Assembly: GCF_019059575.1 (NCBI RefSeq)
Contig: NW_024882875.1
Coordinates: 113,574-177,573, forward strand
DNA: 64,000 bases
Reading direction: 5' to 3'
From: Amphibalanus amphitrite
Lineage: Eukaryota; Arthropoda; Thecostraca; Balanomorpha; Balanidae
A model generated the notes under the pieces. It saw only the letters and a list, made by a program, of their open reading frames with translations, searched no databases and was not told the origin of the DNA. The translations under genes and the position numbers were made by a program. Shown here piece by piece: positions 9,122-59,810 of this stretch (its first letter is position 1; each line of letters starts with the position of its first letter).

Positions 9122-12100
9122 ATGTCGGCCCCGGCGTCTCGGCCTCACTCGCCGGAACAGCCGCCGAGTCCGGCCGACAGCGCCGAGGGCGAGGACCTCG
9201 GGCCGCCGCAGACTGCCCTCTTCCTGCGCCATGTGTCCCAAACGGTGAGCACAGAGATAGATAGCAACCATTGCATGTTTCATGGTTTGCGTTATGTCCT
9301 GTTTGGTTTGAATAGTGCAGAAGTGATCAATGTATCACAGCGTTCAATGCTGTACACTTTGGAAGTTTATTTGCGTGTTATAATGTAACGATAATGTTCT
9401 GGCATTTGATTATTGCGTCTGACTCGTCTTCTCGTCTTCGTTCTGGTTAGTACTCGTTTTCGCTCCTCGACTGCAGTATGTGACCGCCTCGTTCCGGCAG
9501 ACGCGGCGCGCGCACTGCGCCGCGCTGGACCACCTGTACACGCGCGACTGGGCGTGGCGTTCGGACGGCGGGCCCGCTCAGCAGGCCCGGCTGCTGCTCG
9601 TCAACCCCATCAGCAGACCGGCCCGGTACGTGACGGCCGGTGGCGCCGCCGACATACGGGTGACGTCGGCGTTTGGGGTAACTGATGTCAGTGTGCGGGG
9701 TGATTGGTGTTTAGGATGACTGACATTGAAGTGTGGGATGACTGATGTCAGTGTATGGGGTGAATGAATGTCGGCCTGTGAGCTGAGCTCGATTTCGGTG
9801 TGTGAATTGATGTCTGGGTGGGACATTGACTGACGTTTGTATGTGATATAACCAGGGCTGCGGAGTCGATGGATTTTAGGGTGACTCCGATTCCGACTCC
9901 GACTCCGGCTTCAAAAATCGACTCCGACTCCGACTCCAACTCCGACTTCGACTCCGACTCCGGACGGTTCTATTAAAATACATATCATGATATGGAAGCT
10001 CATAATGGATATGTTTTTATCTTGCCTGAAACGATCTCTTGTGCTTTCCAAGGGGTTGCGTTGCAAATTTGCATTAAAAATAATATGCATAATTAAAAAG
10101 CAGGTTCTGGGGAATTCTGGGTCTTGTGCTTCTTTCGCTGTAAACGCTCGTCCAAAACAGAAAAATGACCTTTTTTCGACAAAATCTAATTTCGAGCGCA
10201 GTATCGTCAATTAAACAGGTGCAGTGCATGACGCTAAGCCATGCAGCGTTAACCCGGCCGGGCCCGGGAGGTAATCCCAACCACCGCAGCCCGGGGGGGG
10301 GGGCGTTTTTCGCCCCCCCCCGTCTAACTCCGTAAATAAGGGAGCTACGGAAACAAAAGCGATACCAAACAAAAGGTCCTTACGAGAAGATTCTAAAGCA
10401 CCTAAAGTTTTTGACCTCAGGTCAATTTTCAAGGTCAGAGGTCAAGGTCAAAGGCAAAAACCGGAAGTTAAGCCTTCTAGAGGACGGCAGGCGGCATCAA
10501 ACCGGCAAAATTGGGTGTCAAACGAAAGAAGAGAATCTGAGGATTCCGAAAATGTGCTCAAAATCAAAGGTCAAGGTCAAGGTCACGCTCAAAATTGACC
10601 TCAAACTTGGCACTTTTTCGCACTTCTTGCGTGCTAACTTTCAAGATGTTTTGAAATGTTTTGAGGTTTATCAGTTCCCTATTTGTGGTTTCTCTTACGA
10701 TACAAGGCTGCTCAAAGGTCAAGGTCACTGAAGAGTATCCCTGCTAGAGGCTATTTCACTAATTCAAGTTAGTAATAATAAATCAGACAATTTTGCCATC
10801 CGGAAGCTCTAAATGAAGGTTTGGAGGAAAATTGATGCCAGATTCGTGAACAGCGGGTACAAATCCATCATAAACGACCTTTCATGTGTCAAGGTCAACC
10901 AGAGGTCATTCGAGGTCACATGAGGTCAACATAAAACTTAACCTTTTCCGAACAAAATATATATCATTCGAAGCGGCTTGACAAGGCGAATGCGATGGTA
11001 CCACTGCTGTAGTTCTAGGACCATTTTTGTCGAAGTTATTTGCGAAAAACTAAAACCACATTTCGGGGTCGTTGACCTCTGGGGGTCGACGGGGTCGTTG
11101 GTCTCTGACCTCAGGTCACCAAAACTATTTTTTCTATTTTTTCTCTAGGTCAAACGCTACACAACCGTGCTCGTAATTTGTCTTTATCTCTAAAACTCTA
11201 TTTTTAGCAGCTATTTGAAGTTTGCGTCTGTGACGCCGAAGTTTGCCGTGCAGTGGTCTAGAAAAATGGACCTTGTGACGTCATCAAGGGGGCTAGGTCC
11301 AAATTTTTACGTCAGAAGATATCAAATTGATGGGAGAAAAGGTACTGAAAGTTTCGCTTTCCTATCCCTAAGCGGTCGGGAGCTATCGCAAATATTCGCC
11401 AGGGGGGGGGGGGCGAAAAACGCCCCCCGGGCCCGCGAGGGTTAACTCCGACTCCGGAGTCGGAGTCGGTAGGATTTTGGCGACTCCGACTCCGATTCCG
11501 ACTCCAGGCAGAACTGTCGACTCCGACCGACTCCGACTCGGCAGCCCTGGATATAACTGTCACCAGAGGTCAATGCTTGGGATCACTGTTGTCAGTATTT
11601 AGGTTGACAGACGAATTGTGTAAACTGACGTCTTTGCGACGTCAGATGTCCGCAGTCGCACAAGGAGCGTTGTCGTTGTCATACGACGGTGCGCTCTGTC
11701 ACTGGCCCTACTAGGAATGCGATAAAAGGGATTTACGCGATACCGATATCAGATGCCTGCAACCAAAGATAACAGGCTGCTCAGTCATGGACGATGAACA
11801 TAATGATAGCAAGCTGAAACTTGATTTGCCATGCGTCTGCTCGTTTCTTGCTATATTGTGTATTATTGTTCTTTTTTCTAAGTTCGACCCTCACCGTAAA
11901 CGTCTCTTTGAACACAGCACGATAATTTCTAGCTGAATAACTGACAAAACTGGTTGGCGCACAAAGTGCACAGGAGTAGATGACCTGTCAGGAATAACTG
12001 AACTAATAATGCATCGCACGGCGTTTTACACAACAGTACATCGTCGGTGTTCAAAACTTATTTCGAAAATATTATTCATATCTCCAATACAATGTGCGCT

Positions 12101-15307: not shown

Positions 15308-15345
<38 letters not shown>

Positions 15346-27515: not shown

Positions 27516-28675
27516 ATTTGAGAGTCTGAAAAAAAATGTGTCTGGTGAATACTTTTTGATCCGAAGGGGATGCATTTCAGTACAAAGCAAAGCAGAGTGA
27601 TGGCATGACTAACAGAATATTCCACGATAGATCGACCAAAGCCGTACACCCTCATATTTTATTTTTTGCTTAAAATTGGTCTAATGGGTTGTGATGGGCG
27701 GGGAAGCCAGCTGTGGCAAGGATTTTTTTCTTCGAACAACGGTTTCCGAGATATAGCCTCAGGCAATTCCTGGAGGTCACGCTGCAACCCTATGTTTGGC
27801 GGCTTATAACTCAGAAACTATTGGTTTTCTATGGTAAAAACTTTATATGGTTCAACTCGCAATCTACCAAAAAACGTTTTGGCTATCTCAGGTTTTCGAT
27901 TTTTGAAAATTTTGATCACGTGATATCTTGACCTTTTTTTCGAAGAGTGACCTTGATATTTTCCCAACTGAAAGTCGCAATTATGTCTGATGACGATTAA
28001 AGCCTTATCAATTGTCATTCATATGCGAAAATAAAAAAGTGGCTATCGCCCTGCGTTGACCTCAGGTCAGGTCATTTTTATGACCTGTCCATTATTACGA
28101 GCGGGAGCGACGCGAGATCTCGAGAATAAAGCAAGATAGCGACAAGCGGTAAACGGTACAGGATTCACACGGATAAGGTCTACAATTTTTACGGAGGTTA
28201 TTTTCAGGTTAGGTCAAAGATGACGTCACAGGGGTAAAAAGGAAGTCAAAATAGTTTTGGCTGTACCTTTTGATCAAATAAAGAAAGAGACGTGGAACAG
28301 GCACCATTGTGTTTGCTTTCGCCTAGCGCCAGTTCGTTTTGAATTTCAATACCGATGACCCAAGATCAGGTCAATTTCTTGACCACCCCATTATAAGTCA
28401 ATTGGGGAAAAATCAGCTCCCTTGTTTTTACACTAAAACGCGTTGGAATTGCCTAATATACCATGAGTGACTTCATATACGACTAACTTTGACTACCTAG
28501 AGACCTTTTTTGCTCTTGGTCAACTGTGACGTTGCTCTTGGGTCATGTGACGTCATTAAAGGTCACCAAATGTTTTTTTTTGCTAATAACTCCTTACAGG
28601 TTTAAGATACAGCCGCGCGGATAGGCTCATTGCGTTCAGCTCGTCAAGGCCCATCGAATGATATATATGATGACC

Positions 28676-29586
28676 TTAACCCTCGCCGGCACAGGGGGGG
28701 GGGGGTTGATGCAACCCCCCCCCTAAGGTTTTTCGCGAATAACTCGCGTAAAAAGCGGCCGATCGCGACGAAACTTTCAGTACCCTCGCATTGATCAATT
28801 TTACACCTACCCTGAAAATTTCATGACCCTGACCCCAATGACCTTTGACCTGTGACCTCTTTTCCGAGACCATGTTTGGCCGGAATCGCGATTCGGCGTA
28901 TGTCGGCTAACATTAGCCGCGCGTTTGCAAGCTTTTTGTGGTTTCAAACGTTCAAACATGTGATTTGATGTCGCTCCCATACATTAGGGTGGGTGTCAAG
29001 GTCACCTGAAGGTCAGGTCAGGTCATTGACCTTTGGTGACCTCGGTTGACCTCGGTTCACTTTTTCGAGTTTTACATGTTTCTAGGCTAGTCTTTGGAGC
29101 TGAATTCGAATTTGGCAACCATTTGAACATTTACGAAGTAGTTTTAGTGCCTTCGTAACATGTTACGAAGCTGTCAGAGGCGGTTGACACGTATTACGAA
29201 TACCCGTCACAACCCCTACCGGTTGACCTGACCTGACCTGACCCGACCTGGTCTAAATGCTTAAAGACATCATCTCTGATCAAAACTAACACGATATTCG
29301 TGATCAGCACCCCGGAAAACCACATAGCAGCCACAATTTACGACTTTCTAACAGGTCCCGATTTTCCCGGTTTTCGGGTCATTGACCTGACCTGGAAGGT
29401 CACCCGATGACCTAGGACCTTAAAACTGGGTATCATCGGCTTCGTCTCGTGACGGGCAGCACGCTCGTTTTTTCTGCGAAGCTCTAGCTCGATCAGGGGC
29501 CAAACGCGAGGGGGGGGGTCGTACCAACCCCCCCCCCCCCTTGTGCCGTTAAAGGACGCAAAATGGCCTGTGTCGGCGAGGGTTAA
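28676..29586. mobile_element. TTAA element with GC hairpin ends (911 bp), nested
   Basis: TTAACCCTCGCC ... GGCGAGGGTTAA. The left hairpin core is GGGG-TTGATGCAA-CCCC, the right its diverged inverse. The interior has AGGTCA in the left part and TGACC(T) runs near 29230. The uninserted sequence is preserved at about 47880 in the related element, where the TTAA position is continuous. Confidence 0.83.
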
Positions 29587-29752
29587 GGTCACGTGACCTA
29601 AGATCAACTTTTGACCTTGACCTTTCGAGGTCAACATACACATGTTTCGATGTGGATCGACGAGAGGATCACGATGGTGCTATTAGTTTGTTCCTAGCTG
29701 GGGCACTTTGAAAGTTATTCGAGAAAAACTTCATTTATATGTAGTGCCGCCA

Positions 29753-30438
29753 TTAAAGGTAGACTGCCACCTTTTTTCCACAAAACGGTTTTCACTAGAG
29801 CTGAGCCACCTATGTCCCAGACTGAAGTCGGTTTTCCGAAATTCGAACCCGTTTGCGAGAAATCGGAGACCAAAGTTCAGTTTGATGCCATTTTTTTAGT
29901 CCAAGAAAACCGACATCTCTACTGTTTATCGATAACTTTGAAACATGAATTTTCTTATCTTTTGGTAAATATATGTCAAAACTTTGATTGTTTCGAGATC
30001 AGAGAAGAATTTTGGAGTGTCAAAATAAAAGTTAAACTTGTATATTCAGTAGTTCATTTTTTCCAAAAAAGTGTGGGAAATGGGGTTTAACATGGGCCAG
30101 ACCCATTCCAAATGAGCCATGATTTTTTTAATGTTTTACGAACTTAAATGCAAAATAAATTAAACATGGCCAATTTCTCATGAAATCATATATTAGTAAA
30201 TCATAAAATACCTTACTTTTTCAAATAAAATGTAATAATCTTATGACCTTGAAGTCTAGTGATGTGTAAACATTGTCGCTAGACATTAACCGATTGATAA
30301 TTGTATGAAAATCGACAATTTTTTTCGCGATTCACGTGATGATACTTTGTCAGGTGAATTCTAAAATTTTGTTTTGTCCAGGGAATAAATCATAGGCCGA
30401 TCTGAGAAAACTTTTTGAATGTGGCAGTCTTCCTTTAA
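29753..30438. mobile_element. TTAA-flanked MITE, TTAAAGG-AGACTGCCAC type
   Basis: Starts TTAAAGGTAGACTGCCACC and ends GTGGCAGTCTTCCTTTAA; 686 bp. The uninterrupted host sequence GCCGCCATTTTGAC can be seen at about 48050. It is AT-rich and non-coding. Confidence 0.75.
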
Positions 30439-31120
30439 GACATTCTTTTTACCCCTGTGACGTCATCTTTGACCTGACCTGAAAATGACCTGAGTAAAAA
30501 TTGTAGACCTTATCCATGTGTACTTTGTGCCGTTTACCGCTTGTCGCTATCTTGCTTCGTTCTCGAGATCTCGCTGTCGCTCCCGCTCGTAATAATGGGA
30601 AAGTCATAAAAATGACCTGACCTGAGGTCAACGCAGGCCGAAAGCCACTTTTTTATTATCGCATATGAATGACAATTGATAAGGCTTTAATCGTCATCAG
30701 ACAAAATTGCGACTTTCAGTTGGGATAATATCAAGGTCACTCTTCGAAAAAAGGTCAAGATGTCACGTGATGAAAATTTTCAAAAATCGAAAATCCGAGA
30801 TAGCCAAAACGTTTGTTGGTTGATTGCAAGTTGAACCATATAAAGTTTTATGTAGTTAGGATTTTAAATACTATTTCTTCATATAAAGTTTTTACGATAG
30901 AAAACCAATAGTTTCTGAGTTATAAGCCGCCAAACATAGGGTTGCAGTGTGACATTCAGGAACTGCCCGAGGCTATATCTCGGAAACCGTTGTTCGAAGA
31001 AAAAAATCCTTGCCACAGCTGGGTTCTCCGCCCGTCACAACCCTTTAGATCAATTTTAAGCAAAAAATAAAATATGAGGGTGTAAATTTTATTTATTTTT
31101 GGTCGATCTATCGTGGAATG

Positions 31121-36309: not shown

Positions 36310-36713
36310 ACCCCCTGTGATGTTCGAATGGTTGCTAAATTCGAAATCAGCTCCAAAAACTAGCCTAGAAACATGTAAAACTCGAAAAAGTGAACTGAGG
36401 TCATCAAAGGTCATTGAGCTGACCTGACCTTCAGGTGACCTTGACACCCACCCTAATGCATGGGACCAGCATCATATCACATGTTTCAACGCTTGAAACC
36501 ACGTGTGAAGACTGCAACCGCGCGGCTAATGCGAGCCGACATACGCCGAATCGCGATTCGGGCCAAACATGGTCTCGAGAAATAGGTCACAGGTCAAAGG
36601 TCATTTGGGTCAGGGTCATGAAATTTTCAGGGTAGGTGTAAAATTGATAAAATCGGGGGTATTGATAGTTTCGTCGCGATCGGACGGTTTTTACGCGAGT
36701 TACTCACGAAAAA
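36310..36713 (-). mobile_element. internal fragment of a GC-hairpin TTAA element
   Basis: On the minus strand it follows 28730-29130 of the nested element at 28676-29586: the CGCGAGTTACTC region, AAATTTTCA, AGGTCA runs, the CGAATCGCGATTC palindrome and the CACCCTAATG block. Both TTAA termini are missing. Confidence 0.65.
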
Positions 36714-37033
36714 CCGATAAAGCGCACCCAAAAAGGCAGAAATATGCACATGCGATATCCTATACTGCGAAAAAAGGTGCATCATTTTTGAACGTCGCCA
36801 ACAAATTGTAATTACCCTAAGCTCAGGCAGATGTATGGTAGAAAATCCCCCAAGTGAAATACACTACGGCGGAAATAAAATACCCTACGGCGGAGCTCGG
36901 TTGCAATTTGTAAATACGCGTGCGGGAGAAACCGCATGCGCCGCTATCGTCTGAAGCGCGTCTTTCATGTTTCATATAATGATACCATATTTTCTTTTAA
37001 TTCCTTCATCCAGGATTAGATTTTGTTTTCGTA

Positions 37034-37530: not shown

Positions 37531-39633
37531 TTAACCCGCGCGGGGCTGGGGTCTCCAGCCGAACGCGCGGGACTGGGGGGGGGGGTAAATTTTACCCCCC
37601 TGTTATCTCCCGAACTAATGGTCCGATTTGGAAAATTCAAACGCCAATCGAAAGATCTCATCACGAACAACTAAAAGCATGTACTTAATTTTAAGTTTGA
37701 GGTCAAGGTCAAGGTCAGGTCAAGGGTACAAATTGCAAGTTCCTACGGTATCGGCCTTGCACCGTAGTTGCCGAAGAATGGAGTCATGGACTGAGACTGA
37801 TCGCCCAAAACGTGTTCTTAGGCTACCAAGACAATATTCGTTGCATACAATATCATTCAGAGGTCAAGGTCAAGGTCAGGTCAGGTCAGGTCAGGTCACC
37901 AAAAACAAAATATAGAAAAGGGCATGTGCGACACATGTTTTATGGGTCATTTTAATCATAGAATTCAATAGGCACACTCAATAAGTGATATGGACCACCT
38001 CTGGATGAATTTCAGGTCGAGGTCAGGTCAAGGTCAGGTCAAGTGAGGTCAAATTTTGAAGTTGGTTGTTAAGGCCTAAAAAGGTGTCTATCTGATGCAG
38101 TTTTTCACGGCGAATCGAATGGTGCTATTTTTGTTTCCGTACAAGGTATAGAACTTCCAAAAAAGTCATTTTTCAATTTTTTTGTGTGTCGTGACGTCAT
38201 AAAATTTTGAATAACTCCCACATTTTTTAACCGATTCTTCTAAAAATTGGTATGTAGGTGCACATAGACCACTTCTCTGACATATATTCCGGTTTTTTCA
38301 ATACACTCAAAATTTTAGATTTTATAGTTATTTTCCCCCAAAAATTAAGTTTTTTGGAAAAATTTGATCAAAATCCAAAATTTTCAAAAAACCGAGATAG
38401 CCATTTGATAAACAAAGTAGAATTACGTATAGGGTAACTGTGGGGAAAACGCACCCCTGGGTTAAACGCCTCCCCTAAAAAAATCGTAGATCTTATCGGC
38501 GGATAGGTGTTTTATCCTGTCTTTCAGAACAGTCAGCTGCTTGTTTACGTAGTTCTCTATTTCCGGTTCTGCGTCTTGGGGAGCAGCGTGGGTAGGTGCT
38601 GATGTTGGTTTTGGCTGTTGTTTTTGTTGTTTTTACAGAAGATTCCTAAGCTTTTGATGCCCTCTTTATTTCACAAAACTTGCTATTGTGCACATCACTC
38701 AAAACTGCGTTTTATTGTCATTCTGTTGAATTTATTATGCTGTGGCGTTAGTGGCGCGTTTTTTGTCAATATTTTGTTGACCGGAAATGGAGTGGATGGG
38801 GAAAGACGCCTACTCGATGCATGGGGCAAGACGCCCCTAGTTTTCTGAAAGGGGGGCGTTTTGCACGGTGGTGAGAGTGCAGGGTAGCGCCCTATAGGTC
38901 GGGGCCGAAAAGGCCTCTCCCTGTCCTTTTTTGCTGATACATCCTAAACGACTGCAGATATCGTCACCAAACTTTCAGGACTCCTCCGGGCATCCATTTT
39001 ACACATTGCAACAACATTTTATTCCAAAGGCTATGATAGGTTGACCACAAATGACGTCAGAATGACGTCAAGTTGTGCCATGTTCATCATTTTCTCTGTT
39101 GATGGATGGGGTGGGGGCGCTTTGCACATGGGTGTGGGCGTATTACCCAGGGTGTGGGGCAAAACGCCCTTTTGTAAGGGTATGCGGAAACCTTTTTTGG
39201 GGGTTAAATACAACACGCAAGTGTCTTTTCTTGGTCTCAAAGCGTAGTAAAAAGAATGAGCTACATGATGGTGCCCAAAGGTTTGAGTAATCTGGGTTGG
39301 GTTGAGTGTCAGAAGGTTTCGCGCTTACTGGGGGCGTTTTTGACCTATTCACCCTATCCTTTTTTGTTACGTCTTGATTTCTTTAAAAATGAAGATGTTA
39401 GCGGCGTTTGAACTTTTGCCGTTTTTGAGGCGAAAATGGCGAACATGACGTCACTAAAACGTCAATTTCTTAAAAACTTTCCGACGGATTTCGCTCAAAT
39501 TTTCAGGGAACGTGTCAAATTGATGTAAGAAAAGGTACTGAAAGTTTGGCGGCGCTGCGCGCCGCCGTTTTTGAGATATTGCAAAAATTCGCGAGGGGGG
39601 GTAAAATTTACCCCTCAGCCCCGCGCGGGTTAA
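37531..39633 (+). mobile_element. TTAA element, TAAATTTTA-hairpin subfamily, interrupted
   Basis: TTAACCCGCGCGGGGCTGGG ... CCCCGCGCGGGTTAA. The left hairpin is G-run-TAAATTTTA-C-run; the right is its inverse. It carries AGGTCAAGGTCA arrays at 37700-37730, 37860-37895 and 38010-38050. It is interrupted at 38434-39354 by another element; without it, about 1.18 kb. The intact relative is 40423-41608, nearly colinear and highly similar. Confidence 0.87.
38434..39354. mobile_element. TA-flanked element nested in the TTAA element
   Basis: Comparison with 41330 (ACGTATAACC continuous) shows an insertion starting GGGTAACTGTGGGG after TA and ending TTCACCC before TA. The interior repeats a GGGGCAAAACGCCCC-like phrase at least five times. 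No transposase frame recognised. Confidence 0.7.
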
Positions 39634-40422
39634 CAACATCTGCTATTGTCATCCCGCTTTGATTTGGGCCTGATCTTGGCCATAAGTTTGGCAGGCCAGA
39701 TTTTATACTGCACCAGCTTGAGTCAGTTTGAGAAAAAACATAACGTACAACGGTGGTAAAATCGTTGCTATTATAGGTATAACACAGTTTACCCGCTCCG
39801 TATGTGATGGAGGGGTGTGGGGCAATGAGTGCACTGACGTGGCGCCCTCGGAGGGCCGGTATGGGATTAACCCGCGCCCCGCTGCGCTATTCAGTCATAC
39901 GCGCCCTGCTGGGGGGGGGGGGGCAGATTCTGCCCCCCTGTCTAACTTCCGAACCGATGGTCGTAGAAAGACGGGGAAAACGGCAATCGAAAGCTCTCAA
40001 CGAGGCGAATCTCAAGAGCTCATTTTTTTTTGCTGAAGTAGGTCAGGGGTCAGGTCAAGGTCAGGTCAAGGGTACAAAATGCAAGTTTCTACAGTATCGG
40101 CCTTGCACCGTTATAATTGCAGAAGAATGGACTGAGACTGATTGCCCAAAACGTGTTCTTAGGCTACCAAGACAATATTCGTTGCATACAATATCATTCA
40201 AAGGTCAAGGTCAAGGTCAGGTCAGGTCAGGTCAGGTCACCAAAAACAAAATAAAGAAAAGGGCATGTGCGACACATGTGATGTTTTATTGTTTTATGGT
40301 TCATTTTATTCATAGAATTCAATAGGCACACTCAATTAGTGATATGGACCACATCTGGATGAATTTAAGGTCGAGGTCAGGTCAAGGTCAGGTCAAGTGA
40401 GGTCAAATTTTGAAGTTGGTTG

Positions 40423-41608
40423 TTAACCCGCGCGGGGCTGGGGTCCCCAGCCGAACGCGCGGGGCTGGGGGGGGGGGTAAATTTTACCCCCCCCCCCCTG
40501 TTATCTCCCGAACTAATGGTCCGATTTGGAAAATTCAAACGCCAATCGAAAGCTCTCATCACGAACTACCAAAAACATGTACTTAATTTAAAGTTTGAGG
40601 TCAAGGTCAAGGTCAGGTCAAGTGTACAAATTGCAAGTTTCTACAGTATCGGCCTTGCACCGTAGTTGCCGAAGGATTGAGTCATGGACTGAGACTGATC
40701 GCCCAAAACGTGTTCTTAGGCTACCAAGACAATATTAGTTGCATACAATATCATTCAGAGGTCAAGGTCAAGGTCAGGTCAGGTCAGGTCAGGTCACCAA
40801 AAAACAAAATATAGAAAAGGGCATGTGCGACACATGTTTTATGGGTCATTTTACTCATAGAATTCAATAGGCACACTCAATAAGTGATATGGACCACCTC
40901 TGGATGAATTTCAGGTCGAGGTCAGGTCAAGGTCAGGTCAAGTGAGGTCAAATTTTGAAGTTGGTTGTTAAGGCCTAAAAAGGTGTCTATCTGATGCAGT
41001 TTTTCACGGCGAATCGAATGGTGCTATTTTTGTTTCCGTACGAGGTCTAGAACTTCCAAAAAAGTCATTTTTCAAAAAAATTGTGTGTCGTGACGTCATA
41101 AAATTTTGAATAACTCCCACATTTTTGAACCGATTCTTCTAAAATTTGGTATGTAGGTGCACATAGACCACTTCTCTGACATATATTCCGGTTTTTTCGA
41201 TAGACTCAAAATTTTGGATTTTATAATGATTTTTCCAAAAAAATCAGTTTTTTGAAAAAAATTAGGCCAAAATCCAAAATTTTCAAAAAACCAAGATAGC
41301 CATTTGATAGACTAAGTAAAATTACGTATAACCTTTTTTGTTACGTCTTGATTCCTTTAAAAATGAAGATGTTAGCGGCGTTTGAACTTTTGCCGTTTTT
41401 GAGGCGAAAATGGCGAACATGACGTCACTAAAACGTCAATTTCTCAAAAATTTTCCGACGGATTTCGCTCAAATTTTCAGGGAAGGTGTCAAATTGATGT
41501 AAGAAAAGGTACTGAAAGTTTGGCGGCGCTGCGCGCCGCCGTTTTTGAGATATCGCAAAAATTCGCGAGGGGGGGTAAAATTTACCCCCCCAGCCCCGCG
41601 CGGGTTAA
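40423..41608 (+). mobile_element. TTAA element, TAAATTTTA-hairpin subfamily, intact
   Basis: 1,186 bp, bounded by TTAA. The empty site GTTGGTTGTTAAGGCC is preserved at about 38063-38076. AGGTCA arrays lie at 40597-40620, 40760-40797 and 40913-40951. Confidence 0.9.
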
Positions 41609-41994
41609 GGCTTAAAAAAGTATCTATCTGATGCGTTTTTCACGGCGAGTCGAAGGGTGCTATTTTTGTTTCCGTACGAGGTCTAGAACTTCCAAAAAAA
41701 TCATTTTTCAAAAATGTTGTGTGTCGTGACGTCATAAAATTTTGAATAACTCCCACATTTTTGAACTGATTCTTCTCAATATTGGTATGTAAGTGCACAT
41801 AAACCACTTTTCTGACATATAATCCGTTTTTTCGATACACTTAAAATTTTGGATTTTATAATTATTTTCCCCAAAAAGTCGTTTTTTTTTAGAAAAAAAA
41901 AGGGCCAAAATCCAAAATTTTCAAAAAACCGAGATAGCCATTTGATAGACAAAGTAGAATCACGTATCACCTTTTTTGTTACGTCTTGATTCGT

Positions 41995-43176
41995 TTAACC
42001 CGCGCCCTGCTGGGGGGGGGGGGTGTTTGAACACCCCTCCTCCTTGTGGTTTTTCGCGAATATCTCAAAAGCTCCGCCGTTTTTGGTACACCTTATCATA
42101 CATCAATTCTACACATGTTGTGAAAATTTCAGACCAAGGTCATTCAAGGTCAGGTCACCAGGTCACTTGAAGTGACCTCACCTCATAAAAAGTTTCAATG
42201 TCTGTCATAGCTACACCGAGTAACCGATCGCTTTGAAAATTTCAGCGATTGCTAAGAGCAATAGCATGTACAAAATGTATATCTCAGAATTTTGATATCG
42301 ATGACAAAAGGTCAGGTCAATTTTGCGACCTCCCCATTATAAGTCAATGGGAGAAAATTGAAATGCGCCTCTTTTGGACGAAAGACATTATAAACACTCC
42401 CAAACACCGAATTGCAAGTGGTTTAGACACACTGAACATGAAAATGGTGTCCGTGACCCCTGTTTATGCTCTGAGGTCATCTTAGGTCACGAATGGTATC
42501 TAACAGTTTTTCTCAAATAACTTTTGATAGAGGCATGCTAGAGCGATGAAAACGCCTTAGATGTGTTGAGCTCGACGATACGGATCGACTGATATGCAAC
42601 ATGACCCTTTCCGGTCAGGTCATGACCTTGACCTGAGGTCAAATTTTCAAGTTGACCTTTCAAGGTTAAGTTATAGTTCATTCGATGCGTCTTGACTAGA
42701 GGAACACGATCCCGGTAAAAGTAAGCTCGTACAAGGCTTGGGTCAAAAGTTATTGCAGAAAAACTGTTTCCGAAAAATCGGCTATTTTTGCAGTTTTTGC
42801 CTCCTGCAGGCAAAACCGTTGACGTTAGGTCAAATCTGAGAGAATTATTCAGAAAGGGCGTTAATAGGGCTATCGAATGCGCTTTTCCGCGGCGCTGTAG
42901 CTCTATTGGTTCCCGAGTTATGCGTTGGCTTCTTGGAAATTTTCGACATTCGACCCGGAAATCGGCGAAATTTTGCCTTCAATGACCTCTGGTGACCTGA
43001 CCTTTGACCTGACCAAAAAATTGACCGAAGTAATTTCCTCATTATTTTTCACGCTCTTTCGAACGCCGCCTTCTGCGTATCGCTACGTGGCCCAGGAGCC
43101 GAGTTAGAAGGGGGGTGTTCAAACACCCCCCCAGCAGGGCGTGGAAATCCAGGACCCCCAGCCGGGCGCGGGTTAA
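41995..43176 (+). mobile_element. TTAA element, TGTTTGAACA-hairpin subfamily, intact
   Basis: 1,182 bp, from TTAACCCGCGCCCTGCTGGG to GGGCGCGGGTTAA. The hairpin core is GGGG-TGTTTGAACA-CCCC. The empty site (CCTTTAAAAATGAAG) is seen at 41354. The left half carries AGGTCA, the right half TGACCT, meeting near 42615 at GGTCAGGTCATGACC. Closest relative: 56440-57614. Confidence 0.9.
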
Positions 43177-43638
43177 AAATGAAGATGTTAGCGGCGTTTG
43201 AAATTTTGCGATTTTTGAGGCGAAAATGGCGAACATGACGTCACTAAAACGTCATTTTCTAAAAAAAAAAATTCCGACGGATTTCGCTCAAATTTTCAGG
43301 GAACGTGTCAAATTGATGTATGATAAGGTACTGAAAGTTTGACGTCGCTGGCGTAACGCGTTTAGAAGTTATTGGCGAAAAACGAGAGGGGGGCAGATTC
43401 TGCCCCCCCTCCCCCAGCGGGGCGCGGGTTAACGTTGGTGATTTAGAGGTGCTTAATTTAAGCGACTGGTTTGTTCCGGAATGATAGGTTAAAACGGCTG
43501 GGTTACAGAGGAATTACTGCTTTCTGAATAGGTTTGGTCGGAGAAGGATCTTGCGATGTGTGATCTGGTGACCTGGAAACTGATCTGATGCGGTAAATAA
43601 GTGGCAAGGGAAATAAGCATGTATGGAGGTCGGTTCAG

Positions 43639-43925
43639 GGAACGCCATGAGGGCGCGGGGAACGCCATGAGGGCGCGGGGAACGCCATGAGGGCGCGGGG
43701 GACGCCATGAGGGCGCGGGGGACGCCATGAGGGCGCGGGGAACGCCATGAGGGCGCGGGAAACGCCATGAGGGCGCGGGGGACGCCAGGAGGGCGCGGGG
43801 AACGCCATGAGGGCGCGGGAAACGCCATGAGGGCGCGGGGGACGCCAGGAGGGCGCGGGGAACGCCATGAGGGCGCGGGAAACGCCATGAGGGCGCGGGA
43901 GACGCCAGGAGGGCGCGGGGAACCG
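43639..43925. repeat. 20-bp minisatellite, about 14 units
   Basis: Units of AACGCCATGAGGGCGCGGGG with G/A and T/G variants. The unit contains no minus-strand stop in any frame, so all three minus frames stay open through it; that is not evidence of a gene. Confidence 0.95.
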
Positions 43926-47253: not shown

Positions 47254-48265
47254 TTAACCCGCGCACCGACGGGGGGGGGCGGATATCCGCCCCCCCTGAG
47301 GTTTTTCGCGGATAGCGGGAAAACCGCGGCGCGTAGCGCCGCGAAATTTGATACGACTATTCTCTCATCAATTTTACACATGGTGTGCAAGTTTGAACCT
47401 CCTAACTTTTAAGGTCAGGTCACCAGGTCACTTTGAATGACCCAACCTCAAGTCACTTTTTTGCAACTTTGTCACCGTGCTAGAGCCACAGTAGATGTCG
47501 GAGGCCTTTGAAAGTCGCAGGATGTTATTAGGTCATAAGTAGCTACAATTTGTATATCTCGGAATTTTGATATCGGTGACCTAAGGTCAGGTCAATTTCG
47601 CGACCTCCCCATTATAAGTCAATGGGGAAAAATCAACTCCCTGTTTTTACCACTAAAACGGGTCGGAATGGCCCCATATACTATACATGACTTCATATAC
47701 ATGAATCAACCTTCACTACCTTGAGGTCTGTTTTTCTGTTGGGCAGCTGTAAGGTCATGTGACGTCATCAAAGGTCACCAAATGTTTTTTACCAATAACT
47801 CCGTACAGGAACAAGATACAGCCGCGCGGATGGTCTCATTGTGTTCAGCTTGTCAAGACGCATCGAATGATATACATGATGACCTCGAGGTCACGTGACC
47901 TGAGGTCAACCTTTGACCTTGACCTTTCGAGGTCAAAATATATATCATTCGATGCGGATTGACGAGAGGATCACGATGATGCCCTTAGTTTGTTCCTATC
48001 TTAACTAATTCGAAAGTTATTCGAGAAAAACTCTCTCCATATCTAGCGCCGCCATTTTGACTTTTTCGACCCCTGTGACGTCATCTTTGACCTGACCTAA
48101 AAATGACCTTTGTAAAAATTGTAGACCTTGTCCGTGCGTATCCGATGCCGTTTACCGCTTGTCGCTATCTTGCTTCGTTCTCGAGATCTCAGGGGGGGGC
48201 GGTCATCCGCCCCCCCCCCCCGTCGGTGCGAAGTTGGCGCAGACCCCCGTCGGTGCGCGGGTTAA
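47254..48265 (+). mobile_element. TTAA element, CGGATATCCG-hairpin subfamily
   Basis: TTAACCCGCGCACCGACGGG ... CGTCGGTGCGCGGGTTAA. The left hairpin GGGG-CGGATATCCG-CCCC is perfectly palindromic. A GGCGCG..CGCGCC-type second hairpin follows at about 47325. The interior matches the core of 27618-31120 and preserves the empty sites of both elements nested there. It ends at the TTAA that begins the next element. Confidence 0.87.
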
Positions 48266-49305
48266 CCCTCGCCCTGGCAGGGGGGGGGGGTCGATGCGAC
48301 CCCCCCTAAGGTTTTTCGAAGATAGCGTAAAAACGGCGGCGCGCAGCGCCGCCAAATTTGGCACAGCCTATGGGGCAACCTTTTTACATATGATCTGAAA
48401 ATTTCAGGTCCGGGTGACCTTGGGTCAGGTCACCAGGTCAGAAAACCGGTACAAGGTCATGGTCAAATTTCAATTTTCTTTTTGCACCTGTCCAACTCAC
48501 AGTTTTGCACTGATTTCCTTCAAACTTTCAGGATGTGCTAAGTTCACCGAGTTGTATAACATATAGTTCGGGTTTTTTGAGGTCACTGACCTGAGGTCAG
48601 TTAGAGGTCATTACGTCGTAATGTTAAGCCTATGGGAAAATACTAAATTCGGAAAATACTGGAGATATCCGCTTCGTTCTATCACTTTTGTGCTTTGAAA
48701 CCTCAGTACTTAACAGCAGGTAACTTGGTGCTTCTTTGTTTGGTGTACTTATCCATGGGTCAGGTCAAATGAGGTCAACTGAGGTCAAATGACGTTTTTG
48801 CCAATAACTTGGCACATAATGACGCTAGAGCTTAAAAAATGGTATCATTGTGTTCCTGGTGATCAGCCGAATCGAATGATATGCGATATGATGCAATTTG
48901 GTTAACTTTAACTTAATTTATTAATTTAAGTTTACTTAAAATTTAAGAAAAACTTTAAGCACACATCAGCAAGCTAAAAAGTACATCATTCGACGCGCCT
49001 TGACGTGCTGAGTTCACTGGTGCTTTTCTTTTTGCTCTATCTTAATTAGATCAAAAGTTATAAGCGAAAAAACGTTTGACCTGTTTTTAGCGAAATTTTT
49101 ACATTTATACCCCCCAAAACCCCCCTAAATATTGACCTAGAGCAACCAAATTTGCACAGGTGCGAGATCTCCAGGGGGACCACCTACCTACCAAATTTGG
49201 TGTTTCTAGGTGCCATAGGAGCCAATCGCGAGGGGGGGGGGTCGCATCGACCCCCCCCCCTGCCAGGCCGTGTTATGAAAAATGCCCTGACAGGGCGAGG
49301 GTTAA
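48262..49305 (+). mobile_element. TTAA element, TCGATGCGA-hairpin subfamily
   Basis: TTAACCCTCGCCCTGGCAGG ... CAGGGCGAGGGTTAA; 1,044 bp. Left and right hairpin cores (TCGATGCGA and TCGCATCGA) are exact inverses. It shares its first TTAA with the element before it. The fragment 8142-8345 is a partial copy. Confidence 0.88.
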
Positions 49306-50140: not shown

Positions 50141-51085
50141 TTACAGCTTATCTAGAAGGTTACACTGTCGAAGATACAAGAACAGAGCATCAAGTACTTC
50201 ACAATCATTTCCAAGCAAGTTCTCCACTGTAGGGCGGATGCCTCTGGTCCTACAGGCTGAGATCAGACGCAGTCTCTCCACACGATATTGTCGACAATCA
50301 AGGAGAATGTGTCCCACGTCTTGTTGGCAACGACACACCTCACACACAGGCGCTGGATCATGGTCAATGATGTGTGAGTGAGTAAGTACAGTATGCCCTA
50401 TCCTGAGCCGGCAAAGTACAACCTCTTCCTTGCGGTTTTCACGTACACATGATGACCAGAAACCAATGTTCGGTTTGATGACCTTCAACTGGGTGTTGCG
50501 GTAATCTTGCCACAGCCTCGAAAAGAGTTCCCTTACGCGGTCTTTCACCATAGGTATGTATTCCCGCGGTCCTACCGCGACCCTTGTCACGTTTGGTTTA
50601 TCATGTGCCTTTTTGGCCCAGTAATCGGCCTTCACATTGCCACCAATACCGCTGTGACCTGGTATCCAGACTAGGGTACATTCTAAGCCAGCACATACAT
50701 TGGTGTGGTTTAGTTCTAGAATAGCTTCCAGAATCGGATGATCGTCATTTTTATTTTTCAAGGCCCTGATAGCGGACAAAGAGTCCGTACAAATAAGGGC
50801 TTTTGGAATGCTTTTTGCGCGAACATACCCGATCGCTTCTCTTATAGCCACCAATTCCGCAGTAAATATGGACAAACCGTCCTGGAGCTTAAACGAGAAA
50901 AAGGCATTATTTATCGTGAAAGCACAGGTAGCGGAATCTCCTATTTTGGACCCATCAGTATATAGGATGCGATAACCCGGGTGGTCCTCCACCAGGTCGT
51001 TGAAGGCCATCTGGATGTCAGTCAAAGTCATTTGTCGCTTGTCTTGGGTCAAAAGCATGTGCGTTTTAAGTCGATTCTAGGGCTC
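50141..51085 (-). pseudogene. 5'-truncated non-LTR retrotransposon ORF2, RNase H and zinc-knuckle end
   Basis: A 305-codon frame, ATG at 51058 but open from about 51082. It carries a complete RNase H set: Asp35 (YTDGSK), Glu68 (TAELVAI), Asp92 (TDSLSAI), His135 (WIPGHSGIGGN) and Asp145. A C-terminal CEVC-GHILLDC motif follows (Cys239, Cys242, His250, Cys255). This is the 3' end of a Jockey/I-type reverse transcriptase protein. The endonuclease and reverse transcriptase parts are absent, as in usual 5' truncation. The remaining frame has no stops, so insertion is fairly recent. Confidence 0.88.
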
Positions 51086-51139
51086 TGATTGGTGACTTTG
51101 GTCGGGGGATGACGCTTATAGCATGACGTCACTCGCGTA

Positions 51140-55114: not shown

Positions 55115-55275
55115 CGCCGCCCGCCCGGCTGCCGCCGCGCGCAGTCGACGCTAGCGCACCCTGTGGCCGGCCGGCGAAACGGGGCGAAGACAACCAGCTT
55201 CCCCCGCCGCCCGCTGGATCCGCCGCTGGCCGGCAGTCCCAATCGAGTGCCAATGAGTCCCAAATGCGGCCCAAA
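55115..55275 (+). other. possible orphan exon cut by a transposon
   Basis: A strong acceptor, TTACGTTCTTTCAG, opens into an abruptly GC-rich segment with open frames in a region otherwise AT-rich. The segment runs directly into the mariner element at 55278. Composition resembles the GC-rich exons of KANSL3 and of the gene at 60490. No domain recognised and no donor seen. Confidence 0.25.
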
Positions 55276-55277
55276 TA

Positions 55278-56427: not shown

Positions 56428-56439
56428 TAGTTCCAAATG

Positions 56440-57614
56440 CTAACCCGCGCCGGGCCGGGGGTGTTTGAAACCCCCCCCCTGCGTTTTTTCGCAGATATCT
56501 CAAAAACGGCGGCGCAGAGCGCCGCCGTTTTTGGCACACCTGTTTGTACATCTTTTCCGCACATGTTGTGAAAATTTCAGACCAAGGTCACCTTAGGTCA
56601 GGTCACCAGGTCACGCCAAGTGACCTCACCTCAGAAAAAATAAGAATGCTCGTCATAGCTACACCGACTGAACGATTGCCTTGAAACTTTCAGCGATTGA
56701 TTAGAGCAACACTATCTATAAAATGTTCGTCTCGGAATTTTGATATCGGTGACCTAAGGTCAGGTCAATTTTGCGGCCTCTCCATTATAAGTCAATGGGA
56801 GAAAATTGAAAAGCGTCTGTTTTGCACGAACGCTATTCTAGACACTCTCAAACATCAAGATGTAGGTGAAATTGACACACTGACTGAACCAGAAAATGGC
56901 AACTGTGACCCCCGATATGTCCCCGAGGTCATCTCAGGTCACGAACAGAATCTAACAGTTTTTCGCTAATAACTTCTGATAGAGGCGTGCTAAAGCGCTG
57001 AAAATGCCCTAGATGTGTTCGGCTTGACGTTGCCGATGAACTGATATACAACATGACCTTTTCCGGTCAGGTCATGACCTTGACCTGAGGGCAAATTTTC
57101 AAGTTGACCTTTCAAGGTCAAATTATAGTTCATTCGACGCGTCTCGACGAGAGGAACACGATGCTGGCAAATGTAATGTCATGGCTCTTGTGAGTCAAAA
57201 GTTATTGCCGAAAAAACGCTTTTCGTAAAAACGGCTATTTTGGAGTTTTTGCCCTCTGGAGGCTAAACCGTTGACCTGAAGTCAAATCTGAGAACATTGC
57301 TCAGAAAGGTCTGTAAAAGGGCTATCGAATGCGCTTTTCCGCGGCGCTGTAGCTCTATCGGTTCTCGAGATAGCCGTTGGCAGTTTCAAAAATGCTGAAA
57401 TAGTCAACATTTTACATTTGGTGACCTCTGGTGACCTGACATTTGACCTGACCGAAAAAATGACCGAAGTGTTTTCATCCTTATTTTGGACGTTCTTTCG
57501 ATTGCCGGTTACCACGTGTAGCTACCTGGTCCAGGAGCCGAGTTAGAAGCGGGGTGTTCAGACACCCCCCCGGCCCGGCGCGGAATCTCAGAGCACCGGC
57601 CCGGCGCGGGTTAA
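56440..57614 (+). mobile_element. TTAA element, TGTTTGAAACA-type hairpin
   Basis: CTAACCCGCGCCGGGCCGGG ... CCCGGCGCGGGTTAA; 1,175 bp. The left boundary is CTAA rather than TTAA, a single change. Colinear with 41995-43176 throughout, including the central GGTCAGGTCATGACC. Confidence 0.85.
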
Positions 57615-57849
57615 CACGCGCGGCAATGCATTTGGTATCATTTGGGACTGATTTGAAACTGCAATTGGCACTGCCCATTGAGTTCAACATTATATGGAAC
57701 TAATTGGTAGGTACTAGAAATTGGGGAAAGCACCCTCCGAGTCGAGGGTCCACATTTTGCCACCTCTATCTCCTGTGTAATTTTTAAGAACATTTTTTCC
57801 CATTTTTTAGGTAGGTATATCGATTTCAGTGATGTAGGTAACTACATGG

Positions 57850-58865
57850 CGTTTTCAGTCAAAAAGTGGTAAATGTTTAAAAATCGCCAAGAGCAAGGTT
57901 TAAAGCAAATTGCAAATTAGGGACATGAACAGACGCAGCTCAACGTGTTCTTTAAAATGGCTATCTCGGATTTTCCATGAAATGCGTTTTTCACCCCTAG
58001 AAATTCAAAAAACTTTTTTTTTTAACAGCTTATAAAATCCAAACTTTTGATAGGTATTAAAAAACGGAATATATGTTATAGAGCTCTATTAGAACATAAG
58101 TTGTCCCAATTTCAACTTTCTATCTTGATTTTTGACCCCCAAATTGTAAAAAATAGCTCCAACATGCATTGGGCATGGTGACGTCATAAGCATTTTTGCA
58201 AATTAGAGGCACTTTTGAATATCGTATGTGAAAACCAATGGCACCACTACTAGATTCCTGGGACAATGCTCGTCTAGAAAAGTGCATTTTTATGTTAAAA
58301 GTAAAAAGTTGAAAAATTGACTTTTTTCTTAGCCCTCGTTTAGTTTTGTATGGTATAAACGATTTTTATGCTTACAATGCACACTTAACACCAGCACAGT
58401 GACTTGGGGTCACATGTAGGTAACCATTACCATCGGATTCGGCGTGAAAAATAAGCCATAAAACATGTGTCGCACGCCCATGTAGCAGAAAGTGAAAACC
58501 GTGACCTTTCGTGACCTGACCTGACCTTGACCCGTACTTAGTATGACCCCTATACGCACATGGTACCTTCACTAGGTCTTTGATGTGATTTTTGGTGAGT
58601 TTCGAGCAGCAGCTATCGATTCCGCTGTCCGCAAGCCTAATCATGCAAAACCCCAGAATTTGACCTTTGACCTGATCTTGACCCGAAAGTTGACCTCACT
58701 CTTAAAATCTTAAGAGTGCTTTGGGAAGTTCTCGTAGAGATCTTTCAAACGCCGCCTAGCGGGGCTCGATAGGACCATTGGTTCTTGGGATAACAGGGGG
58801 GGTCGGATCCGACCCCCCCCCAGGCTGTCGTTGGTACGGAAATAGCCCAGGCGGTGCCGGGTTAA
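57850..58865 (-). mobile_element. TTAA element on the minus strand, far end decayed
   Basis: From 58865 downward it reads TTAACCCGGCACCGCC, a GGGG-TCGGATCCGA-CCCC hairpin, TGTTATC, AATGGTCC, AGGTCA runs and GCGTGCGACACATGTTTTAT, following 40423-41608. The distal third is strongly diverged and I cannot find its right terminus. Its TTAA is shared with the next element. Confidence 0.7.
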
Positions 58866-59810
58866 CCCTCGCCCATGTAGGGGGGGGGGGGTTGGTGCAA
58901 CCCCCCCCCCCGAGGTTTTTCGGAAATAGTGCAAAAACGGCGGCGCGCAGCGCCGCCAAATTTTGGGTACCTTATGAGGCAAACCTTGCGCATCTTTTGA
59001 TAAAAAAAATTTGACCGGGTCATGTCAGGTCACGGAGTTATGACGTCACAAAGGGAACAGCCTCCGGCCGGATTTTCACAAACTGAGTGCCAACGCCCGA
59101 GGTTTCCTGCCGGTGGTACGGACATCGGTTGATGGATCGTGATGAAACTTCCCATGCATGTTGGGGCAAGTATTGGCTATCATATGGTATAAGAAACTTG
59201 ACCGGGTCAGGTCAGGTCACGGAGCTATGACGTCACAAGAGGAACAGCGTCCGGTACTATTTTTGAAAAACGCCCGAACCACTATTTTGCTAATTCTTGT
59301 CACCTCAATGGGAATATGCAGCAATATTAGCTTCTATAGGGAGCAAATGGACCTTCCAAATCCAAAAATACAATAAGATTTCAAAAATTTAAATTTTGAT
59401 TTTTCGAATTTCTGCCGCCGACTGTGACCTTGCCGACTTCCGGCGCTCCCAACGCGCCATTTTTAGAGCTAGTGAAACGAAATACATACCAAACGATAGA
59501 GAATTGATCAAGGAACACGATAGTGAAGGTTTCAAGTCGATATCTCCCACCGTTTTGCCGCAATCGCCGCGGAAAGTTGAAAAGTCTATTTTTCCGAAAA
59601 TTTGACCTTTGACCGGTCAAAAGTAGGTCAAATGTTGACCTAGGACCAAAAAATATACCACCAATCGCGAGATCTCGGCGAGAGCAATCCGTTGGTCTTT
59701 TCCGCTAAGCTCTACGACGCTCCGTTTTCAAACGCCAAGGGGGGGTCGCACCAACCCCCCCCCCCTGCATGGGCGAAGGTGGCAGATCGCCGTTTACGGG
59801 CGAGGGTTAA
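58862..59810 (+). mobile_element. TTAA element, TTGGTGCAA-hairpin subfamily
   Basis: TTAACCCTCGCCCATGTAGG ... ACGGGCGAGGGTTAA; 949 bp. Hairpin core GGGG-TTGGTGCAA-CCCC, followed by a perfect GGCGGCGC-GCA-GCGCCGCC second hairpin at about 58937. Confidence 0.85.

What the first reader, a model, noticed from the sequence alone, without database searches (positions are those of the whole stretch)
10249..59810. A superfamily of TTAA-bounded elements with hairpin ends and AGGTCA arrays
At least ten intact or nested copies share one layout: TTAACCC(G/T)CGC, a G-run/short core/C-run hairpin, a TTTTTCGCGAATA module, often a GGCGGCGC/GCGCCGCC hairpin, and then an interior of AGGTCA words. Lengths cluster at 0.9-1.2 kb. 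No copy encodes a protein. Together with their relatives they fill roughly a quarter of the window. TTAA termini point to a piggyBac-type transposase acting in trans; that is inference. I know of no described family with this layout.
Basis: partly seen in the sequence, partly recalled or inferred. Interest (0 to 1): 0.88.

Follow-up and report, generated by a model that had tools for sequence, protein, structure and literature searches.

The report
Barnacle piggyBac mini-transposons with AGGTCA arrays
The repeats are non-coding jumping DNA, almost certainly of a barnacle, of the kind moved by piggyBac enzymes, whose genes were found elsewhere in the same genome; what looks new is the variety of matched address words on their ends and the evenly spaced hormone-receptor-like words inside them.

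Summary
Ten pairs bounded by TTAA+CCC (plus one half-recognisable element) cover about 21% of the window. The genome (807.6 Mb, almost certainly the barnacle Amphibalanus amphitrite) holds 90,832 exact TTAACCCKCGC tips against 734 for the reversed word. The piggyBac inference is supported: the same genome carries 4-6 kb elements with ends of the same design, AGGTCA arrays and a piggyBac transposase (best solved relative: Trichoplusia ni piggyBac, E=1e-56). Window element 58862-59810 is a gene-less relative of one of them (81-87% on both sides).

Every pair has one short and one long end, the palindrome about 28 bp deeper in the long one, as in piggyBac LE35/RE63. A 7-bp "address" occurs three times and a palindrome core twice, element-specific and matched between ends. 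In two independent cases elements share most of an interior (91-97% identical) but carry different matched ends, which looks like end-swapping.

AGGTCA words are far above chance (130 vs 4), kept better than their surroundings in 7 of 9 comparisons, found in 4 coding elements of one piggyBac clade but not in 11 of others, and phased at about 169 bp. Their function is inferred: cis-acting docking sites, more likely for a host factor than for the transposase.

The parts
10249..11445 (-). Complete element, 1197 bp; long end at 10249, short end at 11445; core CGTTTTTCG at both ends (strand - : short end at the high coordinate)
28676..29586 (+). Complete element, 911 bp; short end 28676 (core TTGATGCAA), long end 29586 (core TTGGTACGA); inserted at TTAA in a 47254-like copy
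37531..39633 (-). Element with core TAAATTTTA at both ends; interrupted by a TA-bounded insert at about 38432-39355; 1178 bp without it
39867..43432 (-). Outer element with core CAGATTCTG / CAGAATCTG; hosts 40423-41608 and 41995-43176; 1206 bp without them
40423..41608 (-). Complete nested element, 1186 bp; core TAAATTTTA; paralogous empty site GTTGGTTG-TTAA-GGCC
41995..43176 (+). Complete nested element, 1182 bp; core TGTTTGAACA; empty site T-TTAA-AAATGAAG
47254..48265 (+). Complete element, 1012 bp; core CGGATATCCG / CGGATGACCG; shares TTAA 48262-48265 with the next element
48262..49305 (+). Complete element, 1044 bp; core TCGATGCGA at both ends
56440..57614 (+). Complete element, 1175 bp (left target site CTAA); core TGTTTGAAA / TGTCTGAACA
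57611..58865 (+). Half-recognisable element: long end at 58865 (core TCGGATCCGA); left side TTAACACGCGC without hairpin; shares TTAA with both neighbours
58862..59810 (+). Complete element, 949 bp; core TTGGTGCAA / TTGGTGCGA; gene-less relative of the 3975-bp piggyBac element at G000:C44
47273..47296 (.). Example of the short-end palindrome (GGGGGGG-CGGATATCCG-CCCCCCC), centre 27.5 bp from the tip
42137..43010 (.). Example of the interior: AGGTCA/TGACCT clusters centred at 159, 316, 484, 637, 832 and 1000 bp from the left end of 41995-43176
28332..30572 (+). Copy of the 47254 kind broken by element 28676-29586 and by a second TTAA-bounded insert (about 29755-30444)
36320..36717 (-). Fragment of the 28676 kind (88%)
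7996..8345 (.). Fragments of two kinds, including a tip TTAACCCTCGC at 8335-8345

Best explanation
These are non-autonomous piggyBac elements (large MITEs, 0.9-1.2 kb), mobilised in trans by transposases of one piggyBac clade whose genes sit elsewhere in the same barnacle genome. SHOWN: TTAA target sites; one short and one long end per element; a 7-bp address word present three times and a palindrome core present twice, both matched within an element; coding relatives with ends of the same design, AGGTCA arrays and a piggyBac transposase; 90,832 exact tips in the genome. INFERRED from the published piggyBac structures: the transposase reads the address words at the tips and its C-terminal zinc domain reads the palindrome; the deeper palindrome and extra address copy of the long end seat a second transposase dimer, so that a long+short pair is cut and pasted into TTAA. 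INFERRED with less certainty: the phased AGGTCA clusters are cis-acting docking sites that help the element be mobilised (not help a gene be transcribed, since the MITEs have none). The protein that reads them is more likely a host factor than the transposase, because the word stays fixed while the transposase-read ends diversify.
For: Ends: 10 of 10 window pairs have one short and one long end. Palindrome centres average 27.7 and 56.05 bp from the tip, difference 28.35. PiggyBac LE35 and RE63 differ by 28 bp, with the palindrome at bp 17-33 of the short one and an insertion plus duplication in the long one (PMC7351741 passages). Cores match between the ends of one element: 9.9 of 11 positions against 5.7 permuted, 0 of 20,000, nine elements. 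In 15 end sets the 7-bp word of the short tip matches the long tip (6.27 of 7 vs 3.03 permuted) and an inner copy 26-27 bp deeper in the long end (6.47 vs 4.29), 0 of 20,000 each.

Partners: PF13843, 116 matches scored. Elements at G000:C33 (4723 bp, 666-aa open frame), C702 (5973 bp, 683-aa open frame), C44 and C1173 (3975 and 3977 bp, 99% alike, frames apparently broken) have both ends. The C33 protein matches PDB 6x67 over residues 137-664, E=1.3e-56. Three copies of it are listed at 100%, and 5 of 6 fetched border stretches show the end at TTAA with different flanks. 9 of 10 window elements have a BLAST match (E<=1e-5) to a coding element outside the MITE nested in C702, the best on both sides being 58862 (81% and 87%); 10249 matches only that nested MITE.

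Insertion: three paralogous empty sites, one loose. Copies: 90,832 tips vs 734 reversed. AGGTCA: 130 vs 4.1 expected; kept 88/101 vs 324/761 for matched other hexamers in three pairs; phased at 169 bp, 0 of 1000 block shuffles; in four coding elements of one clade, not in eleven of others.
Against: No transposition was observed. Only 58862 has a fairly close coding relative, and even there the tips differ; other window elements match coding elements at 68-89% over pieces of 50 bp or more, and 10249 not at all outside a nested MITE, so their own transposases were not found. The third empty site reads TCGA, not TTAA, in the comparison copy. One end of the C33 element begins CCT. 57611-58865 lacks a recognisable left end. 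AGGTCA words were not kept above background in two of nine pairs (27619 v 31119: 10/16 vs 0.65; 58862 v 48262: 2/20 vs 0.09, at 52% identity where the alignment is poor). The families share ancestry, so the phasing is not eight independent observations. The C44 family steps by about 187 bp and is partly made of visible tandem duplicates, and C702 is less regular. Three more transposase loci (L020, L036, L044) have AGGTCA words nearby but their borders could not be drawn; two of them (L020, L044) lie outside the array clade.
Confidence: 0.9

Rival explanations
1. The AGGTCA clusters are subterminal binding sites of the transposase itself, as in transposons with subterminal repeat arrays.
For: The clusters begin about 160 bp from both ends, mostly point inwards (77 of 99 first-cluster words in 16 elements, several of them near-copies), occur in coding and non-coding copies, and were found in one transposase clade.
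Against: The word is identical in families whose tips and palindromes differ, although a transposase's site should change with it. The clade's proteins show no extra domain beyond PF13843 in Pfam. Described piggyBac and piggyBat sites lie within about 63-120 bp of the tip.
Confidence: 0.3
2. The AGGTCA clusters dock a host nuclear receptor or similar factor, one cluster per nucleosome-sized step, keeping the element's chromatin open or placing it for mobilisation in the germ line.
For: AGGTCA is the nuclear-receptor half-site (recalled; the abstract start of PMC1785376 names DR1-DR5 of RGKTCA). Period 169 bp. All six positions are constrained. The word is fixed while the ends vary. Neighbour spacing 10, as in DR4, occurs 13 times. 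TGACGTCA words stand at some grid places where AGGTCA is missing.
Against: 33 neighbour spacings are 5 or 6 (overlapping or abutting words) against 25 in the whole DR1-DR5 range. The C44 family steps by about 187 bp. A helical A/T signal was weak and may come from the arrays themselves.
Confidence: 0.4
3. The phased clusters are only a relic of tandem duplication of a 165-190 bp unit, without function.
For: C44/C1173 contain 187-bp tandem duplicates at about 87% identity, and 58862 contains one at 85.5%. 4 of 108 segment pairs between clusters score 30 or more, none of the shuffled ones; two of the four are inverted.
Against: The other 104 of 108 segment pairs score below 30 (mean of all 17.9 vs 16.0 shuffled), while the words are kept at 87% against 43-45% for other hexamers.
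Confidence: 0.2
4. Another TTAA superfamily (Kolobok, Sola3 or similar; names recalled) moves these elements.
For: TTAA alone does not single out piggyBac.
Against: CCC tips, LE/RE-like asymmetry and coding copies with piggyBac transposase.
Confidence: 0.03
5. The matched ends of elements with near-identical interiors differ because ends evolve fast point by point, not because ends are exchanged.
For: In 28676 vs L007 the tip spacer keeps some similarity. Several other pairs have ends moderately less alike than the interior.
Against: 47254 vs the C702-nested element: 96-97% over the middle and long side, then an abrupt change inside the end palindrome; 49% in the long tip and 56% in the short tip.
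Confidence: 0.4

Closest known systems
piggyBac of Trichoplusia ni (LE35/RE63, PDB 6x67/6x68; PMC7351741, passages read)
   Same: TTAA target, CCC tip, short and long end, palindromic internal repeat 28 bp deeper in the long end together with a sequence duplication; transposase with three aspartates (identity of the catalytic ones recalled) and C-terminal zinc domain
   Different: Many co-existing address/core types in one genome; G/C-run palindromes; phased AGGTCA arrays; non-coding copies in tens of thousands
Pokey / mPok of Daphnia (PMC3849761, passages and section 9 read)
   Same: Crustacean piggyBac with large (about 750 bp) deletion-derivative MITEs, TTAA insertion, copies inserted in the TTAA flanking another copy (23% of mPok), repeats of about 200 bp upstream of the gene
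   Different: Pokey repeats come from rDNA and are absent from mPok; here AGGTCA arrays are kept in the MITEs. Pokey targets 28S rDNA; mPok has 90-110 copies. AGGTCA does not occur in that paper's main text
CMITEs of Acropora corals (PMC2872659: abstract, part 1 of 4 of the text, sections 10 and 14 read)
   Same: TTAA, piggyBac-like CCC tips, interior better conserved than the ends between families, tandem arrays
   Different: About 100 bp long; no AGGTCA arrays and no long/short end design in the parts read
piggyBat of Myotis (PMC11707139, passages read)
   Same: Repeated short motif plus imperfect palindromes at one end, bound by the zinc domain dimer
   Different: The other end has no corresponding palindrome
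PiggyBac types listed for Amphibalanus amphitrite (PMC10813416, passages read)
   Same: Five types, three intact, up to 4732 bp; the 4723-bp C33 element may be one of them
   Different: That survey excluded MITEs; AGGTCA and the end design do not appear in the passages seen
Transposons that carry nuclear-receptor half-sites (Alu, circadian enhancers from mouse transposons; search listing and abstract starts only)
   Same: Receptor half-sites spread by a transposon
   Different: As far as the listing shows, no phased arrays and no piggyBac ends

Membership tests
piggyBac superfamily | Insertion at and duplication of TTAA | tested here: met
   Ten pairs flanked by TTAA (one end CTAA) and three paralogous empty sites, one of which reads TCGA in the comparison copy
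piggyBac superfamily | Terminal repeat beginning CCC | tested here: met
   20 of 20 ends of the ten window pairs; one end of the coding element C33 begins CCT
piggyBac superfamily | Asymmetric ends with a palindromic internal repeat at about bp 25 and about 28 bp deeper | tested here: met
   Means 27.7 and 56.05, difference 28.35 (single values 22-32), 10 of 10 elements
piggyBac superfamily | Transposase of PF13843 with DDD and C-terminal cysteine-rich domain in a coding relative with ends of the same design | tested here: met
   C33 and C702 have open frames with the cysteine-rich end, C44 and C1173 look broken
piggyBac superfamily | Seamless excision and trans-mobilisation by that transposase | not testable with these tools
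   Needs a cell assay
MITE (non-autonomous, short, high copy) | No coding capacity, uniform length, high copy number | tested here: met
   911-1206 bp; 90,832 exact tips vs 734 control; no PF13843 match on the window's contig among 116 scored
MITE (non-autonomous, short, high copy) | Derived from an identifiable coding element | tested here: inconclusive
   58862 matches both flanks of the C44/C1173 family at 81-87%; eight other window elements have only more distant coding matches and one (10249) none outside a nested MITE
Pokey / mPok | rDNA-derived repeats and 28S rDNA target | not tested
   No rDNA comparison was made
CMITE | Interior more conserved than ends between families | tested here: met
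   Strongly in 3 of 12 pairs (two independent cases), weakly in some others; CMITE's size of about 100 bp is not met
Nuclear receptor response element arrays | Direct repeats with 1-5 bp spacers (DR1-DR5) | tested here: inconclusive
   Neighbour spacings: 5 (21), 6 (12), then DR1-DR5 together 25, of which DR4 13
Named Repbase/Dfam family | Consensus match in a library | not testable with these tools
   No transposon library at hand

The most novel reading that the evidence does not exclude
A barnacle piggyBac clade has evolved a two-layer code. The outer layer is an exchangeable address (a 7-bp word three times plus a palindrome core twice) that couples each element to one transposase, and MITEs can swap it as a matched set while keeping their interior, so they move from one transposase to another. 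The inner layer is a nucleosome-spaced array of host nuclear-receptor half-sites that the element needs in cis to be mobilised, which ties transposition to hormone or germ-line chromatin state.
Probability: 0.2. Interest if true: 0.85.

Novelty: new variant of a known kind. Interest (0 to 1): 0.62.

Why it matters
The need of piggyBac for unequal ends is called enigmatic by those who solved its structure (PMC7351741 passage). Here many naturally diverged end sets keep the long/short rule, the 26-27 bp step of the duplicated word and the matched palindrome, which gives a natural alignment of what the transposase must read. If matched ends are exchanged between interiors, that is a route by which MITEs could escape the loss of their own transposase. 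The phased AGGTCA arrays pose a testable question: does a DNA transposon enlist a host chromatin or hormone factor to be mobilised? If the exact tips are mostly paired, the elements number about 45,000 and make up perhaps 6% of the genome (inference, at 1.1 kb each), so they also carry many receptor-like words near genes.

Tried and rejected
Viral contig scans with an AGGTCA-array pattern and an end pattern found nothing. A comparison meant to show that the 165-bp steps are recent tandem copies gave a score of 30 or more in only 4 of 108 segment pairs. A helical A/T test for nucleosome preference was weak and is not used as evidence. A Pfam scan for an AGGTCA-binding domain in the transposases gave only PF13843 plus sub-threshold rows. 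Searches for print on AGGTCA with MITEs or piggyBac, and on barnacle repeats, gave no description of these elements in what was listed or read; most subscription papers are not in that library. Genome counts of AGGTCAGGTCA and AGGTCAAGGTCA could not be had: busy.

Rows dropped before counts: the L003/56440 pair was left out of the sum because it repeats the 41995/56440 comparison; the two 58862/C44 comparisons of the same call (6/6 and 4/5 words kept) were not summed either. 37531 was left out of the nine-element permutation (95% like 40423); 37531 and 39867 were left out of the eight-element tests; near-copies L001, L003, L005, L008, 37531 and C1173 were left out of the 15 end sets. The eleven control elements are loci where both ends could be drawn and still include near-copies (L013/14/16/21; L022/26); further near-identical copies of L022 and locus L015 were not counted. 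In one search, 116 of 232 candidates were scored, 67 of 225.
Full report
WHAT IS THERE. The window is animal DNA with an insulin-degrading-enzyme-like frame (1673-4687; Peptidase M16 domains). The genome it belongs to is 807,550,619 bases in 2644 contigs, with the window at C1378:113574-177573. A transposase of that genome is 96-97% identical, over 52% of its length, to two proteins annotated as Amphibalanus amphitrite, so the host is almost certainly that acorn barnacle. Ten TTAA-bounded pairs and one half-recognisable element were verified. Two lie inside a third (40423-41608 and 41995-43176 in 39867-43432). One pair of neighbours (47254/48262) and one run of three (56440/57611/58862) share a single TTAA, which is what insertion into the TTAA at the edge of an older element gives; the same has been reported for Pokey in Daphnia (PMC3849761 passages).

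INSERTION AT TTAA. Three paralogous empty sites were found in the window. The place of 40423-41608 is uninterrupted in two relatives as GTTGGTTG-TTAA-GGCC; that of 41995-43176 as T-TTAA-AAATGAAG; that of 28676-29586 is present in the 47254 kind, where it reads TCGA instead of TTAA, so the third case is looser. Outside the window, copies of a 4.7-kb coding relative on three contigs have different flanks, and 5 of 6 fetched border stretches end at TTAA; the sixth stretch did not contain the end.

ENDS. Each of the ten pairs has one short and one long end. Measured from the first C of the tip, the palindrome centre lies at 23-31 (mean 27.7) in the short end and 51.5-60 (mean 56.05) in the long end; the difference averages 28.35, range 22-32, with G-runs of varying length. 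In moth piggyBac the short end is 35 bp with the palindrome at bp 17-33, the long end is 63 bp with an insertion and a duplication, the C-terminal zinc domains bind the palindrome, and with native transposase only the long/short combination both excises and integrates (PMC7351741 passages). The correspondence is close. The palindrome core differs between elements but agrees between the two ends of one element (0 of 20,000 permutations, nine elements). In 15 end sets from the window and the genome, the seven bases after the first seven of the tip recur in the long tip and again 26-27 bp deeper in the long end (0 of 20,000 permutations each). That layout is what piggyBac itself is described to have in outline; what differs here is how many sets co-exist.

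PARTNERS. PF13843 (piggyBac transposase) gave 116 scored matches of 232 candidates. Four coding elements with both ends of the present kind were delimited: C33 (4723 bp, 666-aa open frame; one end begins CCT), C702 (5973 bp including a nested MITE, 683-aa open frame), and C44 and C1173 (3975 and 3977 bp, 99% alike, frames apparently broken). The C33 protein is matched three times at 100% in the genome, a sign of recent movement. Its best solved relative is T. ni piggyBac, E=1.3e-56; three aspartates in the positions of the catalytic core (positions recalled) are invariant in the five aligned proteins. In a tree of 33 proteins the four array-bearing coding rows and seven rows without arrays fall on opposite sides of a fully supported branch (100/100); 22 rows were unlabelled. 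Three further loci (L020, L036, L044) have AGGTCA words near the gene, but their borders could not be drawn; L036 belongs to the array clade, L020 and L044 do not, so restriction to the clade is not proven. Nine of ten window elements match a coding element by BLAST outside the MITE nested in C702, but only 58862-59810 does so at 81-87% on both sides; no coding element with the exact tip and core of a window family was found.

AGGTCA. In eight non-identical elements AGGTCA occurs 130 times on both strands against 4.1 expected from base composition. Words one base away are near background, except ACGTCA (20, part of TGACGTCA), GGGTCA (14) and CGGTCA (10). The clusters are phased: pair distances of 160-179 bp occur 116 times against 27.5, and 60-119 bp only 8 times against about 93; the best period is 169 bp, not reached in 1000 block shuffles. 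The coding element C33 shows the same grid from both ends (161, 322, 486, 649 from one side; 188, 357, 528, 671 from the other); the C44 family steps by about 187 bp, and C702 is less regular. Between diverged relatives the words are kept far above other hexamers: 88 of 101 against 324 of 761 hexamers of equal G+C without CpG, in three pairs. In the wider set of nine pairs, seven show the excess and two do not. Eleven other piggyBac elements of the same genome hold 28 words in 30,946 bases (15 expected), against 33 in 4723 for C33. First-cluster words point inwards 77 to 22 in 16 elements, some of them near-copies.

END EXCHANGE. Twelve pairs of full elements were compared end by end. Three pairs, from two independent cases, have much the same interior and different ends. 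First, 28676 (and L005) against L007: interior 91-97% identical, with both tips and cores of a different matched set (long tip 49%, short tip 69%). Second, 47254 against the element nested in C702: 96-97% over the middle and the long side up to the G-run of the long-end palindrome, then 49% in the long tip and 56% in the short tip; here the first 285 bp on the short side differ too. In the other nine pairs the ends are as alike as the interior or moderately less so. Exchange of matched ends is the simplest reading for the second case; fast divergence cannot be excluded for the first. No donor element was identified.

HOW IT WORKS. Shown: the anatomy, TTAA, the coding partners and the copy number (90,832 exact tips, 734 for the reversed word; 15,486 exact TTTTTCGCGAATA, 10 reversed). 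Inferred: piggyBac cut-and-paste, with address and palindrome read by the transposase. For the arrays, the argument is this. Pokey's authors took the absence of rDNA repeats from mPok as a sign of a transcription role. Here the arrays are kept in MITEs, so a role in mobilisation fits better; and a word that stays fixed while transposase-read ends diverge fits a host reader better than the transposase.

NOVELTY. It meets every piggyBac feature that could be tested. New as far as seen (searches; passages of PMC10813416, PMC8270832 and PMC11331182): the array-bearing clade, its phasing, the diversity of matched address sets in one genome and the change of matched ends on near-identical interiors. 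A 2023 survey lists five A. amphitrite piggyBac types up to 4732 bp and excluded MITEs, so a coding member may already have a name. No transposon library could be consulted.

Noticed in passing
window 27619-31119: A larger element-like unit with inverted terminal stretches of about 640 bp (27619-28247 vs 31119-30439) that also holds AGGTCA words; its class was not determined.
   Followed up: partly
window about 29755-30444: A second kind of TTAA-bounded insert with ends like AAGGTAGACTGCCAC, without the hairpin layout.
   Followed up: no
window 38432-39355: TA-bounded insert (ends GGGTAACT... / ...CACCC) inside element 37531-39633; perhaps a mariner-type MITE.
   Followed up: no
window 57611-58865: Element with a normal long end but no recognisable short end; its interior resembles the 37531 kind in places, by eye.
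   Followed up: no
window 1673-4687: A 1004-aa uninterrupted frame for an insulin-degrading-enzyme-like peptidase (M16), apparently without introns.
   Followed up: no
window 50141-51076: RNase H-bearing frame (PF00075), probably a non-LTR retrotransposon remnant.
   Followed up: no
G000: L022-L032: Another piggyBac family with TTAACCCATTAGTGCCCA ends and many 604-aa copies of nearly equal score, without AGGTCA arrays; looks recently active.
   Followed up: partly
window elements 10249, 37531, 39867, 40423, 47254, 58862: TGACGTCA (CRE-like) words stand near several grid positions, in the 40423 kind where AGGTCA clusters are missing.
   Followed up: partly
window 43638-43923: About fourteen copies of a 20-bp GC-rich tandem repeat just outside the nested cluster.
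   Followed up: no
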